Shown: positions 1-4,467 of the stretch, one piece after another
Layout of the letters: each line of letters begins with the position of its first letter
Numbering within the stretch: the first letter of the stretch is position 1
DNA from: Cyanobium sp.
GTDB lineage: Bacteria > Cyanobacteriota > Cyanobacteriia > PCC-6307 > Cyanobiaceae
Assembly (NCBI GenBank): GCA_014191535.1
Contig: BJHC01000062.1
Location: 1 to 7,628, forward strand
Direction of reading: 5' to 3'
Length of the DNA stretch: 7,628 nt
Translations under genes and position numbers: made by a program
The notes under the pieces: model-generated
The model's input: the letters and a program-made list of their open reading frames with translations, nothing else
What the model was told of the DNA's origin: nothing
The model's database searches: none

Positions 1-923
1 CCCTGATCCGCGCCGCCGAAAACGGCAAGCAGGTGATGGCCCTGGTGGAGCTCAAGGCCCGCTTCGATGAAGACAACAACATCCAGTGGGCCCGCCAGCT
101 GGAGCGCTCCGGCGTGCATGTGGTTTATGGGGTGATCGGCCTCAAGACCCACACCAAGATCGCCCTGGCCATCCGCCGGGAGAAGGGTGAACTTCGCGGC
201 TACTGCCATGTGGGCACTGGCAACTACAACTCCCGCACCGCTGGCCTCTACACGGATGTCGGCATCCTGAGTTGCAATGCCGACCTGGTTCAAGACCTGG
301 TGGAGTTGTTCAACTACCTCACCGGCTTCTCCAAACAGCAGAACTTCCGCAAGTTGCTGGTGGCCCCGGTCACCCTGCGCCAGCGCATGCAGGAGCTGAT
401 CCAACGGGAAACCGAGCATGCCCGTGCCGGCCGACCCGCCGCCATCAAGGCCAAGATGAATGCCCTGGTGGATCCGGCGATCATCGCCCTGCTCTACGAA
501 GCCTCCCAGGCCGGCGTGCAGATCGACCTGGTGGTGCGCGGCATGTGCAGCCTGCGGCCGGGGCTGGAGGGCATCAGCGACAACATCCGCGTGAGCAGCG
601 TGATCGGTCGCTTCCTGGAACACTCACGCCTGTTCTGGTTCGCCAATGGCGGCAGCGATGAGATGTACATCGGCAGCGCCGATTGGATGGCCCGCAACCT
701 GGATCGCCGCGTCGAAGCGGTGGTGCCGATTGAAGATCCGGATCTTCACGCCCGGCTGCTGCGCCTGATCAACACCTACCTGAGCGACAACAGCACCGCC
801 TGGGACATGCAGGCGGATGGCAGTTTCAGCCGCCGCATTCCTGAAGACGACAGCATCGCCGTACAGGCCACCTTGATGACGGGTTGGAGACATGGACTGA
901 GCAACGACGACGACGCGCCGTAA
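1..923 (+). CDS. ppk: Polyphosphate kinase 1, C-terminal part (5' end outside window)
   Basis: PPK1 reversibly transfers the gamma-phosphate of ATP onto inorganic polyphosphate through a phosphohistidine intermediate. The open frame is read from base 3 with no start in the window, leaving 306 residues against about 690 for a full PPK1, so only the two C-terminal catalytic domains are present. The motif GLKTHTKIAL carries the expected autophosphorylated histidine (codon at 150-152), followed by HVGTGNYN and LYTD. The second catalytic histidine is in FLEHSRLF (codon 621-623). The two histidines are 157 residues apart, the same distance as His435 and His592 of the E. coli enzyme. The C-terminal tail after about base 800 is acidic and probably disordered. 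The stop is TAA at 921-923. No hairpin with a T-run follows, so no intrinsic terminator is seen. The GTG and ATG at 33-38 are internal codons. Identity is very secure from the motifs. Confidence 0.97.
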   Translation, partial: LIRAAENGKQVMALVELKARFDEDNNIQWARQLERSGVHVVYGVIGLKTHTKIALAIRREKGELRGYCHVGTGNYNSRTAGLYTDVGILSCNADLVQDLVELFNYLTGFSKQQNFRKLLVAPVTLRQRMQELIQRETEHARAGRPAAIKAKMNALVDPAIIALLYEASQAGVQIDLVVRGMCSLRPGLEGISDNIRVSSVIGRFLEHSRLFWFANGGSDEMYIGSADWMARNLDRRVEAVVPIEDPDLHARLLRLINTYLSDNSTAWDMQADGSFSRRIPEDDSIAVQATLMTGWRHGLSNDDDAP

Positions 924-985
924 CGCCCACTACAAAAGCTAAGAAAATCAAACGAAAAGACTGCGGCAAGTCTTCCAATTCGTCG

Positions 986-1014
986 TGTTCTGTTGATGGT
1001 GGTAGTGCTACATT
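986..1014 (+). promoter_or_regulatory. Candidate extended -10 promoter for the sigma factor gene
   Basis: TGCTACATT at 1006-1014 reads as an extended -10 element (TGn followed by TACATT, 4 of 6 matches to TATAAT). The hexamer at the usual -35 distance (around 986-991) is a poor match, which is tolerable for an extended -10 promoter. Just upstream, about 934-958 is an A-rich, low-GC island in otherwise GC-rich DNA, as often found in promoter upstream regions. Transcription would start near 1021, giving a leader of about 20 bases before the ATG at 1043. This is a pattern match only, with no experimental support. Confidence 0.35.
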
Positions 1015-1042
1015 CCGGCCAACCATTTACGGAGCCTGGGGC

Positions 1043-2098
1043 ATGGGCGCACCTCAACACTCCACATCCCCTGAGTTGCCCGCAACGTCCCGCTCCCAAG
1101 CATCCAACCAATCCGCCAGGATCGCAGCACCGATGGAATCCTCAGAGGCCCGCGCTTCCCAGCGAAATGAAAACAGATCAACCACCCGAAACGCCGCATC
1201 CAAACAGAGCGGTCGCCTCAGTGCTGATTCGATCGGCTGGTACCTGAGCAACATCGGCCGTGTGCCGCTGCTCACCCCCGCCGAAGAAATCGAGCTGGCC
1301 CACCATGTGCAAGCCATGAAGCGGCTGCAAGCACTGCCGGCTGAGCAACTCACACCGCGCCAAAACCATCAGATCCGCATGGGCACCCGGGCCCGCGATC
1401 GCATGATGGCCGCCAACCTGCGCCTGGTGGTGAGCGTGGCCAAGAAGTATCAGAACCAGGGCCTCGAACTGCTCGATCTGGTGCAAGAGGGGGCGATCGG
1501 CCTGGAGCGGGCCGTCGATAAGTTCGACCCCGCCATGGGCTACAAGTTCTCCACCTATGCCTACTGGTGGATTCGCCAAGGCATGACGCGCGCCATCGAC
1601 AACAGCGCCCGCACCATTCGTCTGCCGATCCACGTGAGCGAAAAGCTCTCCAAGATGCGGCGCATCACCCGCGAACTGTCCCACCGCTTCGGCCGTCAGC
1701 CCAATCGTCTGGAAATGGCCCATGCCATGGGCATGACCCCCAACGAGCTGGAGGAACTGATCGCCCAGAGCGCCCCCTGCGCCTCCCTCGACGCCCATGC
1801 CCGCGGCGACGACGACCGCAGCACCCTCGGCGAACTGATTGCCGACCCCAACAGCAACGAATCCATGGATGGCATGGATCGCAGCCTGCAGAAGGAGCAC
1901 CTCGGCACGTGGCTGTCCCAGCTCAATGAGCGGGAGCGCCGCATCATCGAACTGCGCTTCGGCCTGGCGGGCCAGGAGCCGCTGACGCTGGCTGAAATCG
2001 GCCGCCAGATCAACGTGTCCCGCGAGCGGGTGCGCCAGCTGGAATCGAAGGCGCTGCTGAAGCTGCGCCTGATGACCAACTACCAACAGGCCGCCTGA
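1043..2098 (+). CDS. Group 2 RNA polymerase sigma-70 factor (RpoD-like)
   Basis: This sigma factor directs RNA polymerase to -10/-35 promoters. Region order is standard: region 1.2 from about residue 62 (DSIGWYLSNIGRVPLLTPAE), region 2 from about 117 (MMAANLRLVVSVAKKY, LDLVQEGAIGLERAVDKF), and the 2.3-2.4 DNA-melting and -10 recognition segment at about 171-197 (TYAYWWIRQGMTRAID, RTIRLPIH). Region 3 follows to about 250. Region 4 spans about 291-346, with the helix-turn-helix LTLAEIGRQINVSRERVRQL. There is no region 1.1, and the near-RpoD region 2.4 marks it as group 2 rather than the primary factor. The chosen ATG has GGAG 8 bases upstream and gives 351 residues. An internal ATG at 1133 (AGGA 11 bases upstream, 321 residues) is a real alternative. 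The first ~60 residues are a Ser/Asn/Arg-rich tail with lower-GC codons. It lies downstream of ppk and overlaps the next gene by 4 bp. Confidence 0.93.
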   Translation: MGAPQHSTSPELPATSRSQASNQSARIAAPMESSEARASQRNENRSTTRNAASKQSGRLSADSIGWYLSNIGRVPLLTPAEEIELAHHVQAMKRLQALPAEQLTPRQNHQIRMGTRARDRMMAANLRLVVSVAKKYQNQGLELLDLVQEGAIGLERAVDKFDPAMGYKFSTYAYWWIRQGMTRAIDNSARTIRLPIHVSEKLSKMRRITRELSHRFGRQPNRLEMAHAMGMTPNELEELIAQSAPCASLDAHARGDDDRSTLGELIADPNSNESMDGMDRSLQKEHLGTWLSQLNERERRIIELRFGLAGQEPLTLAEIGRQINVSRERVRQLESKALLKLRLMTNYQQAA

Positions 2099-2763
2099 AC
2101 CCGGAGCCGCTGCTGGGGGTTGCCGTTGTCGCAGCCTGGCTCGCCGTTGTGGTGGCCATGGCTCTGGCGGTGCGCCATCGCTGGCCCCAACAGCGGGAGT
2201 GGAGCCGCAAGCTGGTGCACATCGGCACCGGGCCGGTGGTGCTGTTGGCCTGGGCCTTCGGCATCGGCCGGGAGATCGCCCTGCCGGTGGCGCTGTTGGT
2301 CACCGCCGCCACCGCCCTCAACCACCGGCTGCAGCTGTTGCCGGCCGTGGAAGATGTGGGGCGCCACAGCTACGGCACCGTGGCCTACGGCGCGTCGATC
2401 GCCGTGCTGCTGGCCCTGTTCTGGCCGCAGCAGCCCCTGGCGGTGGCCGCCGGGGTGCTGGTGATGGCCTTCGGGGATGGCTTGGCGGGGCTGGTGGGGC
2501 CGGCGCTGCCCTCACGGCGCTGGCAGCTGTGGGGCCAGACCAAATCCCTGGCGGGCACGGGCTGCATGCTGATCGCCGCGGGGATCGTGTTGGCCCTGCT
2601 CACGGCCCTGGCGACCGCCAGCGGCCAACCGGCCCCGCCCCTGCAGGCCTGTTTGGGGTTGGCGGTGCTCGCCACGGCCCTGGAGCAGTGGAGCGTGTTT
2701 GGGGTCGACAACCTCAGCGTGCCCGTGCTCACCGGGGTGCTGTGGAGCCACTGGAGCGGCTGA
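2095..2763 (+). CDS. Phytol kinase / phosphatidate cytidylyltransferase family membrane protein, probable CTG start
   Basis: The family includes cyanobacterial and plant phytol kinase (VTE5), which phosphorylates phytol for tocopherol and chlorophyll-tail recycling, as well as dolichol kinases and CDP-DAG synthases. Seen here (222 residues): a short N-terminal hydrophobic helix (about 6-26), SRKLVHIGTGPVVLLAW (about 37-53), ALNHRLQLLPAVEDVGR, the family signature MAFGDGLAGLVG (about 124-135), the downstream TKSLAGT (149-155), and a C-terminal EQWSVFGVDNLSVPV. About six hydrophobic segments indicate an integral membrane protein. The frame is open back to a stop at 1993, but no ATG, GTG or TTG occurs before GTG at 2149, which would cut into the first helix. 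CTG at 2095 gives the intact helix and a 4-bp CTGA overlap with the sigma stop, with a weak CAGG 4 bases upstream. Substrate (phytol versus another lipid alcohol) is inferred from the family only. Confidence 0.85.
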   Translation: MNPEPLLGVAVVAAWLAVVVAMALAVRHRWPQQREWSRKLVHIGTGPVVLLAWAFGIGREIALPVALLVTAATALNHRLQLLPAVEDVGRHSYGTVAYGASIAVLLALFWPQQPLAVAAGVLVMAFGDGLAGLVGPALPSRRWQLWGQTKSLAGTGCMLIAAGIVLALLTALATASGQPAPPLQACLGLAVLATALEQWSVFGVDNLSVPVLTGVLWSHWSG

Positions 2764-2774
2764 GGCCAGCTCCC

Positions 2775-3122
2775 TCACACCCGCAGCATCGCCTCACAGC
2801 GCTGCTCCCAGTCGTGCTGGGTGCCCAGACCGGCCACCAACAGATGACCGGCGGGTTCCTCCTGCAGCCGCAACTGCCATTGGCGAATGGCCTCGGCCCG
2901 CTCCATCCACACCTCCAGCACCGTGGCCTGGATGCGGTCCCGATCCCAGCCCCGGCGGCAGGCGGCGTCCTGCGCCCAGCCCAGCAACCCATCCAATTGG
3001 AACGGCCGCAAGCCGGTGAACACCGGGCCGGGGGCCTCCACGCTGCGCTGCTCCAAATAGAAGAGCTGCAGCGGATCGGAAACCCCGCAGAACTGCAACA
3101 GGTAGGTGATGCGTGCCGCCAT
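2775..3122 (-). CDS. Uncharacterised small soluble protein downstream of a CIRCE operator
   Basis: I do not recognise a named domain. The 115-residue product starts MAARITYLLQFCGVSDPLQL and ends CEAMLRV. It has no signal peptide or membrane helix, has five tryptophans in GW, VW, QW and DW contexts, and looks mostly helical in its second half. ATG at 3122 was chosen because GGGGG lies 5 bases upstream in the transcript. The same frame extends to an ATG at 3143 and a GTG at 3209, but neither has a ribosome site and the GTG form would run through the inverted repeat. GC-rich codon use and compact placement support a real gene: its stop is 11 bp from the convergent stop of the phytol kinase gene, with no terminator visible between them. 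It is the only gene positioned to be controlled by the CIRCE element about 90 bp upstream, suggesting a heat- or protein-stress role. That role is inference from the operator alone. Confidence 0.75.
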   Translation of the reverse strand: MAARITYLLQFCGVSDPLQLFYLEQRSVEAPGPVFTGLRPFQLDGLLGWAQDAACRRGWDRDRIQATVLEVWMERAEAIRQWQLRLQEEPAGHLLVAGLGTQHDWEQRCEAMLRV

Positions 3123-3172
3123 CACAACCCCCGTGGAATGCATCACCGCAACGTAAGCCGCACGGCAGGCAA

Positions 3173-3206
3173 CACCGTTCACAGCAAACCTTTGTTGTGA
3201 ACGGTG
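3173..3206. repeat. Perfect 11-bp-arm inverted repeat with nested dyad
   Basis: CACCGTTCACA (3173-3183) and TGTGAACGGTG (3196-3206) are exact reverse complements separated by 12 bases. The spacer itself holds CAAA-CC-TTTG (3185-3194), so the outer stem is continued by an inner one after a single non-Watson-Crick position (G3184/T3195). It lies in the presumed leader of the small minus-strand gene, about 50 bases before its start codon and just beyond the CIRCE element. No T-run follows on either strand, so it is not a standard intrinsic terminator. It could be an mRNA leader hairpin, a processing or 3'-end structure for the upstream DAHP synthase transcript, or a second protein-binding operator. 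Confidence 0.85.
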
Positions 3207-3209
3207 CAC

Positions 3210-3236
3210 TTAGCACTCACACATTGCGAGTGCTAA
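3210..3236. promoter_or_regulatory. CIRCE operator (HrcA binding site)
   Basis: TTAGCACTC (3210-3218), nine spacer bases, then GAGTGCTAA (3228-3236) is an exact match to the CIRCE consensus TTAGCACTC-N9-GAGTGCTAA. HrcA binds this palindrome and represses heat-shock genes, classically groES/groEL, dnaK and hrcA. Here neither neighbour is a chaperone. Transcribing leftwards, the first gene is the 115-residue unknown protein (start at 3122). Transcribing rightwards, only the antisense strand of the DAHP synthase is met. The operator abuts and slightly overlaps a candidate -10 element of the leftward promoter, a layout suited to repression. Confidence 0.95.
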
Positions 3237-3262
3237 ATATGCGTTTGAACGGCTTAAACCAA
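3234..3262 (-). promoter_or_regulatory. Candidate promoter of the small CIRCE-controlled gene
   Basis: On the minus strand, TTGGTT (3262-3257) and TATTTA (3239-3234) are separated by 17 bases. The hexamers are imperfect (-10 about 3 of 6), but spacing is ideal and the -10 runs into the CIRCE half-site. Transcription would start near 3227, inside CIRCE, leaving a leader of about 105 bases that contains the inverted repeat. The -35 overlaps the last codons of the DAHP synthase gene. CATATT, one register upstream, is an alternative -10. Confidence 0.35.
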
Positions 3263-4327
3263 AGCCACTGAGCGGGATTGGGCGCTGGCCACGGCTCCGG
3301 CCAGCTCCTGCAGCAGCGCACGGGTGGTGTCCAGATCGATGCAGGCATCGGTGATGCTCTGGCCGTAGGTGAGCTGGGAGAGATCCGCTGGGATTTTCTG
3401 GTTACCCGCCACCAGGTGGCTCTCGATCATCACGCCCATCACATGGCGGCTGCCGCTGCGCAGCTGCTCGGCCACCTGGCCGGCCACCTCCCCCTGACGG
3501 CGGTAGTCCTTGTTGGAGTTGCCGTGGCTGCAATCCACCATCACCCGGGCCGGTAGCCCCTCCTTCTCCAGGGCGGCGGCGGCGCTCTCAATCGCTTCGG
3601 AGTGGTAGTTGGTGCCCTGTTTGCCGCCGCGCAGCACCAGGTGGCCGTCGGGATTGCCGGTGGTGGTCACGATCGCGGCGTGGCCGTCTTTGTTGATGCC
3701 CAGGAAATTGTGGGGACGGGCCGCCGCCTCCATGGCGTTGATGGCGGTGATGGCACTGCCATCGGTGCCGTTCTTGAAACCAATCGGCATCGACAGCCCC
3801 GAGGCCATCTCCCGGTGGGTCTGGCTCTCGGTGGTGCGGGCGCCGATGGCGGTCCAGCTGATCAAATCAGCGATGTACTGCGGCACCACCGGATCCAGCA
3901 GTTCCGTGGCGGCGGGCAGGCCCATGTCGGCCAGGTGCAGCAGCAAGCCACGGGCCAGCCGCAGGCCGGTGTTGATGTCGTAGCTGCCGTCGAGGTGGGG
4001 ATCGTTGATCAGCCCTTTCCAGCCCACGGTGGTGCGCGGCTTCTCGAAATACACCCGCATCACCACCTCCAGCTGATCGCGGTGGCGGCGGTGCTCCTCC
4101 GCGATGGCGGCGGCGTACTCCTGGGCCGCCTGCACGTCGTGCACGGAGCAGGGGCCCACGATCACCAGCAGGCGTGAATCCTCACCCCGCAGGATGGCCT
4201 TGATCCGCTCGCGGGCCTCACGCACCGTGGTGGCCGCCGTCTCCCCCATCGGCAGTTCGCCGTGCAACAGGGAGGGCGCCACCAGCGGCCGCGTTTCCAC
4301 CACGTGGAGATCGGAGGTGGGGATCAT
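3254..4327 (-). CDS. aroG: 3-deoxy-7-phosphoheptulonate (DAHP) synthase, type I AroG-like
   Basis: This cytosolic enzyme condenses phosphoenolpyruvate and erythrose 4-phosphate to DAHP, the first step of the shikimate pathway. The 357-residue product matches the ~350-residue AroF/G/H class. Visible active-site and metal residues align almost one-to-one with E. coli AroG: Cys60 in IVGPCSVHD, Arg91 and Lys96 in MRVYFEKPRTT, Lys185 in GFKNGTDGSA, His268 in VDCSHGNSNKD, Glu302 in VMIESHLVAG and Asp327 in QSITDAC. The residues that line the Phe/Tyr feedback pocket are broadly preserved, but which amino acid inhibits it cannot be told from sequence. ATG at 4327 was chosen because the family begins just before the TSDLHVVETRPL segment; the frame extends to 4420, but the extra 31 residues are Cys/Pro-rich and unlike the family. 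It is divergent from acnB, with no intrinsic terminator after its TAA. Confidence 0.97.
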   Translation of the reverse strand: MIPTSDLHVVETRPLVAPSLLHGELPMGETAATTVREARERIKAILRGEDSRLLVIVGPCSVHDVQAAQEYAAAIAEEHRRHRDQLEVVMRVYFEKPRTTVGWKGLINDPHLDGSYDINTGLRLARGLLLHLADMGLPAATELLDPVVPQYIADLISWTAIGARTTESQTHREMASGLSMPIGFKNGTDGSAITAINAMEAAARPHNFLGINKDGHAAIVTTTGNPDGHLVLRGGKQGTNYHSEAIESAAAALEKEGLPARVMVDCSHGNSNKDYRRQGEVAGQVAEQLRSGSRHVMGVMIESHLVAGNQKIPADLSQLTYGQSITDACIDLDTTRALLQELAGAVASAQSRSVALV

Positions 4328-4363
4328 GCCGGCAGCCGCAGGGCAGCACAGGGGACAGACCAG

Positions 4364-4392
4364 CCTAAAAGCCCGATTGCAGCCGTTGTCAC
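4364..4392 (-). promoter_or_regulatory. Candidate promoter of the DAHP synthase gene
   Basis: On the minus strand GTGACA (4392-4387, 5 of 6 matches to TTGACA) is followed after 17 bases by TTTAGG (4369-4364), a weak -10. Transcription would begin near 4357, about 30 bases before the ATG at 4327. The -35 is persuasive and the -10 is not, so this is a tentative call. Confidence 0.25.
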
Positions 4393-4398
4393 CAGAGC

Positions 4399-4407
4399 GG
4401 GGGGGGG
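4399..4407 (+). repeat. G9 homopolymer in the aroG/acnB divergent intergenic region
   Basis: Nine consecutive G residues lie between the divergent starts of the DAHP synthase (4327) and aconitase (4468) genes. The tract is about 60 bases upstream of the acnB start codon. Such tracts are prone to slipped-strand length change and to sequencing error. No convincing acnB promoter could be defined around it; AACAAT at 4416-4421 is the closest -10 resemblance but lacks a well-spaced -35. Confidence 0.8.
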
Positions 4408-4467
4408 TGGCAAAGAACAATGGGTGTCACGTCACAGTTCGTCAGGTCCCCCAGGACCCCTGCGCCG

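What the first reader, a model, noticed from the sequence alone, without database searches (positions are those of the whole stretch)
2775..3262. Perfect CIRCE/HrcA operator in front of an uncharacterised small gene rather than a chaperone gene
TTAGCACTC-N9-GAGTGCTAA at 3210-3236 is an exact CIRCE, overlapping a candidate -10 (3239-3234) and lying about 90 bp before the ATG of a 115-residue unknown protein. CIRCE normally marks groESL, dnaK or hrcA. A match of 18 fixed positions is very unlikely by chance, and rightward transcription meets only antisense DNA. This nominates the small protein as a new member of the HrcA heat-shock regulon, possibly a chaperone cofactor or stress adaptor.
Basis: partly seen in the sequence, partly recalled or inferred. 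Interest (0 to 1): 0.82.

Follow-up and report, generated by a model that had tools for sequence, protein, structure and literature searches.

The report
Unknown gene sharing the chaperonin switch
A small cyanobacterial gene of unknown function carries the same DNA switch (CIRCE) that sits in front of the chaperonin genes, kept in many related lineages, so it is likely turned on together with them under stress and may help the protein-folding machinery.

Summary
In detail: an exact CIRCE lies at 3210-3236, 87 nt before the ATG (3122-3120) of a 115-residue minus-strand ORF. The assembly encodes HrcA; its only other CIRCE found is at groESL. Regulon membership is strongly supported by comparison. 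CIRCE (at most 4 of 18 mismatches) precedes the homologue in 104 of 126 usable genomes of the same family and 38 of 70 from other families; three controls gave none. In 22 genomes chosen because they hold the gene, 54 of 55 CIRCE sites found lie at groESL, solo groEL or this gene. Two genomes without the gene show one site each, at groESL. Papers seen in passages name only groESL and groEL2 as CIRCE genes of cyanobacteria. The protein is under purifying selection and has no family or convincing structural match. HrcA binding, heat induction and a chaperonin-linked function are untested.

The parts
3210..3236 (-). CIRCE, the HrcA operator (exact 9-9-9 inverted repeat)
   Evidence: 0 mismatches, none in 200 shuffles; conserved before homologues
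2775..3122 (-). Uncharacterised 115-residue protein gene, stop codon included
   Evidence: homologues in 134 of 400 family genomes and 81 of 292 phylum-sample genomes; median dN/dS 0.13
3150..3155 (-). TACGTT, candidate -10 element downstream of CIRCE, 20 bases after GAACG (3176-3180)
   Evidence: GRRCR-N20-TAnnnT in 83 of 115 family leaders against 25 of 2300 mononucleotide shuffles; the pattern was drawn up after looking at the same leaders
3173..3206 (-). Inverted repeat in the leader (arms 3196-3206 and 3173-3183); operator half-sites or RNA hairpin, undecided
   Evidence: read from the sequence; related GTTC/GAAC arms in many family leaders by eye
3234..3239 (-).
   Evidence: present; not conserved in the family
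3254..4420 (-). Upstream neighbour: DAHP synthase gene, whose stop lies 17 bases before CIRCE
   Evidence: PF00793 E 8.5e-91, TIGR00034

Best explanation
A conserved CIRCE operator lies in front of a small uncharacterised gene, and the repressor HrcA, which this genome encodes, is predicted to hold the gene down in unstressed cells and release it under heat or similar stress together with groESL. Shown here: the operator, the HrcA gene, the conservation of operator plus gene across several cyanobacterial families, and that nearly all other CIRCE sites in the genomes examined are chaperonin genes. Inferred: that HrcA binds this site, that the gene is stress-induced, and that the protein, a compact alpha/beta fold by prediction, works in the chaperonin pathway, most likely as a soluble GroEL-linked accessory factor or adaptor. 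Where transcription starts is unsettled: a promoter-like element downstream of CIRCE is better conserved in the family than the one overlapping CIRCE.
For: Exact CIRCE. HrcA E 4.9e-27. CIRCE before 104 of 126 family and 38 of 70 other homologues, 0 in three controls. 54 of 55 CIRCE sites in 22 selected gene-bearing genomes are groESL, solo groEL or this gene. Two gene-less genomes show only the groESL site. 80 of 81 gene-bearing genomes of the phylum sample have HrcA. Upstream neighbours differ between families. On the gene tree CIRCE is clustered yet reaches both deep halves.
Against: No CIRCE before 10 of 126 family homologues although all ten genomes have HrcA, nor before 32 of 70 others. 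G450 has gene and CIRCE but no HrcA match. In several other-family loci the upstream neighbour is divergent (for example L173, L183, L185), so CIRCE could serve it too. No -10 next to CIRCE is conserved in the family. No expression or binding data; no sequence or fold evidence for a chaperonin link.
Confidence: 0.72

Rival explanations
1. HrcA controls the gene, but the protein belongs to the HrcA circuit itself: a small feedback factor that binds HrcA or HrcA-GroEL and tunes its return to the operator.
For: 80 of 81 gene-bearing genomes of the phylum sample have HrcA, also where the gene has no CIRCE.
Against: 60 genomes have HrcA without the gene, and G450 has the gene without an HrcA match; shared ancestry can explain much of the overlap.
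Confidence: 0.15
2. HrcA controls the gene, but the protein protects something unrelated to chaperonin under stress, such as a metabolic enzyme or the photosynthetic apparatus.
For: Nothing in sequence or predicted structure ties it to chaperonins.
Against: Its company in the CIRCE set is chaperonin genes in 43 of the 44 sites that are not at this gene's own promoter or its tandem copy, in the 22 selected genomes; this shows co-regulation, not function.
Confidence: 0.3
3. The CIRCE is a relic or serves another transcript, and the gene is not under HrcA control.
For: Promoter-like element lies downstream of CIRCE; some homologues lack CIRCE; some loci have a divergent neighbour.
Against: 18 positions kept in 104 of 126 family genomes while the bases around them drift; neighbours differ between families.
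Confidence: 0.08
4. The protein is a VapI-like antitoxin, as some source names suggest.
For: JGI names; a weak profile match to the HTH protein YbaQ (2eby, E 0.05).
Against: No HTH family in Pfam or NCBIfam for any of 76 members; predicted order strand-helix-strand-three helices-strand-helix.
Confidence: 0.03

Closest known systems
Cyanobacterial HrcA/CIRCE regulon (groESL1 and groEL2; PMC4227741, PMC4390874, PMC5381637, passages)
   Same: Same operator, same repressor family in the genome, same genomes; in the family, groESL and this gene each have one site.
   Different: The product is not a chaperonin, and in the family the operator lies farther from the conserved promoter-like element than at groES.
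wcw_0502 of Waddlia (PMC12038028, passages)
   Same: A lineage-specific non-chaperone gene with a conserved CIRCE; HrcA occupancy was measured there by ChIP-qPCR.
   Different: Another phylum and a candidate type III effector; no relation between the two proteins was tested.
GroES and GroEL
   Same: Share the operator.
   Different: No Pfam match of this protein family to either.

Membership tests
HrcA/CIRCE regulon | CIRCE inverted repeat upstream of the gene | tested here: met
   exact
HrcA/CIRCE regulon | HrcA encoded in the genome | tested here: met
   contig C226, E 4.9e-27
HrcA/CIRCE regulon | operator conserved before orthologues beyond chance | tested here: met
   104 of 126 and 38 of 70, controls 0; not universal
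HrcA/CIRCE regulon | operator overlaps promoter or start of transcription | tested here: inconclusive
   TATTTA overlaps CIRCE but is not conserved; another element lies downstream
HrcA/CIRCE regulon | HrcA binding, derepression in an hrcA mutant, heat induction | not testable with these tools
   needs bench work
GroES/GroEL chaperonin family | Cpn10 or Cpn60 profile match | tested here: not met
   no such match among 76 members
VapI/HigA-type antitoxin | helix-turn-helix profile match | tested here: not met
   no HTH family among 76 members
Any solved fold | structural match of the predicted model | tested here: inconclusive

The most novel reading that the evidence does not exclude
This is a third, non-chaperonin member of the cyanobacterial HrcA regulon: an unrecognised GroEL-linked factor, with no relative found among solved structures, that cyanobacteria make whenever they make more chaperonin.
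Probability: 0.35. Interest if true: 0.88.

Novelty: new member of a known kind. Interest (0 to 1): 0.76.

Why it matters
The papers seen here name only chaperonin genes as CIRCE/HrcA targets in cyanobacteria. A further target kept across several families, and nearly the only non-chaperonin one in the genomes examined, gives a single small gene to test as a partner of the chaperonin system in photosynthetic cells. It is a concrete knock-out and pull-down target.

Tried and rejected
Wrong frame: searches used 2775/2778-3121 for the small gene, one base off (it starts at 3122). Their null results for it are void and the in-frame stop counts are artefacts; the loci were real and were re-read. The work was repeated in the right frame. 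One search printed minus-strand loci on the wrong strand; only its CIRCE hits are usable.

Gene decay in some families: one search reports one stop inside a few matches (G475, G479, G492, G530, G545), but the translated proteins run to a slightly earlier C-terminus, so I dropped that idea.

Literature: eight searches listed no paper that, by title, start of abstract or the passages I opened, ties CIRCE to this gene; one search returned no paper at all. Nine papers were opened, in passages only: PMC2662882, PMC4755962, PMC7734504, PMC7760821, PMC8400943, PMC4227741, PMC5381637, PMC4390874, PMC12038028. The 2003 and 2006 hrcA-mutant papers cited there and the RegPrecise database were not read.

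Full report
OBSERVATION. The window holds one CIRCE, exact, at 3210-3236; 200 dinucleotide shuffles gave none at up to 3 mismatches. On the minus strand it is followed after 87 bases by the ATG (3122-3120) of a 115-residue ORF that ends at 2775. Upstream on the same strand is a DAHP synthase gene (3254-4420), whose stop lies 17 bases before CIRCE.

THE GENOME. The window's assembly is incomplete (1.94 Mb, 84% complete, 439 contigs). At up to 3 mismatches it has two CIRCE sites, this one and one on contig C8, the latter before groES-groEL. HrcA is encoded on contig C226 (E 4.9e-27). Sites in the missing part cannot be excluded.

THE GENE IS REAL. With the 19-row alignment A1, 134 of 400 genomes of the same family match. 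With the 76-row alignment A2, 81 of 292 genomes of the phylum sample match, 70 of them outside the family. Among 113 pairs drawn from 97 family genes (equal length, 80-99% identity, moderate synonymous divergence; pairs not independent) dN/dS has median 0.13 and maximum 0.34. Of the 321 database relatives of a Nostocales homologue, 120 were listed; their names are 'hypothetical' or 'uncharacterized' protein, source names such as VapI or GTPase that no profile here supports, or missing. The window protein has no Pfam or NCBIfam match at E 1. Of 76 members one has a stray Pfam match (C2c1_helical, E 2.7e-4) and none an NCBIfam match.

CIRCE FOLLOWS THE GENE. I fetched loci for 131 of the 134 family genomes (not fetched: G221, G281, G331); 5 were set aside for a missing N-terminus or under 300 bases upstream, leaving 126. 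The 70 other-family genomes were all used. Best CIRCE within 450 bases upstream: family, 104 of 126 with 4 or fewer mismatches of 18, 12 with 5, 10 with 7 or more; other families, 38 of 70 with 4 or fewer. Three controls (reversed pattern and scrambled palindrome on the same upstreams; CIRCE in 450 bases downstream, 124 and 69 sequences) never went below 5. Eight of the twelve with 5 mismatches share one symmetric variant (CTGGCACTC...GACTGCCAG), and a ninth, G102, has it in a shifted register. Outside the window's family, at 3 or fewer mismatches: f7 27 of 28, f9 3 of 3, f14 3 of 3, f2 2 of 2, f6 1 of 5, f11 1 of 7, and 0 of 22 genomes in the other 16 families. Upstream neighbours differ: an M42 peptidase, an ATP-grasp protein and a divergent EamA transporter by Pfam in three loci, further ones by eye. 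Where the neighbour is divergent CIRCE could serve it as well.

WHAT ELSE CARRIES CIRCE. In 12 family genomes chosen because they hold the gene, the scan found two sites each; 23 of 24 are groESL or this gene (21 loci by tblastn, 3 by gene coordinates), and one of the 21, L359 in G099, is near neither. In 10 such genomes of other families it found 31 sites: groESL 10, groEL without groES alongside 10, this gene 11 (tandem in G564); 22 by tblastn, 9 by gene coordinates. As a contrast, 15 genomes that lack the gene (2) or lack CIRCE before it (13) show 24 sites; the 15 fetched, one a genome, are all groESL or groEL, and 9 were not looked at. The 14 family genomes checked for HrcA, among them the ten without CIRCE before the gene, all have it.

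CO-OCCURRENCE AND TREE. HrcA matches 140 of 292 genomes; both 80, gene only 1 (G450), HrcA only 60, neither 151. The Fisher p (8.7e-32) ignores shared ancestry and should not be taken at face value. On a 131-row gene tree (family thinned; CIRCE called at 5 or fewer mismatches, 91 rows) the label needs at least 11 changes, 9 forced by supported branches, against a shuffled mean of 34.4. So the link is either old with repeated loss or arose more than once at this gene; few columns, and the tree does not decide.

PROMOTER. Bases just upstream of CIRCE are not conserved in the family, whereas GRRCR-N20-TAnnnT occurs between CIRCE and the gene in 83 of 115 leaders against 25 of 2300 mononucleotide shuffles. 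I drew up that pattern after reading leaders of the same set, so it needs independent data. In the window it is GAACG at 3180-3176 and TACGTT at 3155-3150. At most family groES loci a CATA-type -10 abuts CIRCE by eye; the window has GCATAT in nearly the same place. In Synechocystis the groES start was mapped to the CIRCE loop (PMC2662882, passages). HrcA may therefore act here from a different position, or there are two promoters. This is open.

PROTEIN. Predicted structure of the window protein: mean pLDDT 91.6, pTM 0.82; of a distant homologue 87.0 and 0.78; both strand-helix-strand-helix-helix-helix-strand-helix. Foldseek and VIA give nothing convincing; this does not show a new fold. Invariant in A2: G13, L43, D44, W59, W72, W82. 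No function can be read from this.

MECHANISM. Shown: operator, HrcA gene, conservation, company of chaperonins. Inferred: HrcA occupies the site, stress frees it, the protein rises with GroESL and acts in that pathway. I put regulon membership near 0.85-0.9 and the chaperonin-linked function near 0.35-0.5.

KNOWN OR NEW. Passages of PMC4227741, PMC4390874, PMC5381637 and PMC8400943 name groESL and groEL2 (in one, a further groESL copy) as the cyanobacterial CIRCE genes; PMC7760821 (passages) says hrcA-mutant arrays hinted at further genes without CIRCE. Eight searches listed no paper tying CIRCE to this gene; most subscription papers and regulon databases were out of reach.

Noticed in passing
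genome G450 (locus L181): Holds the gene and a CIRCE with 2 mismatches but has no HrcA match, while its close relative G611 has HrcA.
   Followed up: no
L359 (genome G099): A CIRCE-like site with neither groESL nor this gene beside it.
   Followed up: partly
genome G564 (locus L157): Two CIRCE-like sites in tandem, 1 and 2 mismatches, before the gene.
   Followed up: no
viral contigs, loci L406-L485: 104 viral stretches carry an exact CIRCE; of 80 examined 8 have groES and/or groEL similar to the cyanobacterial ones nearby, the rest are unexplained.
   Followed up: partly
window 2101-2763, + strand: A 220-residue frame beside the gene with no Pfam match at E 1.
   Followed up: no
window 884-2098, + strand: Sigma-70 family factor of the cyanobacterial RpoD/SigA type next to a polyphosphate kinase end.
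   Followed up: no
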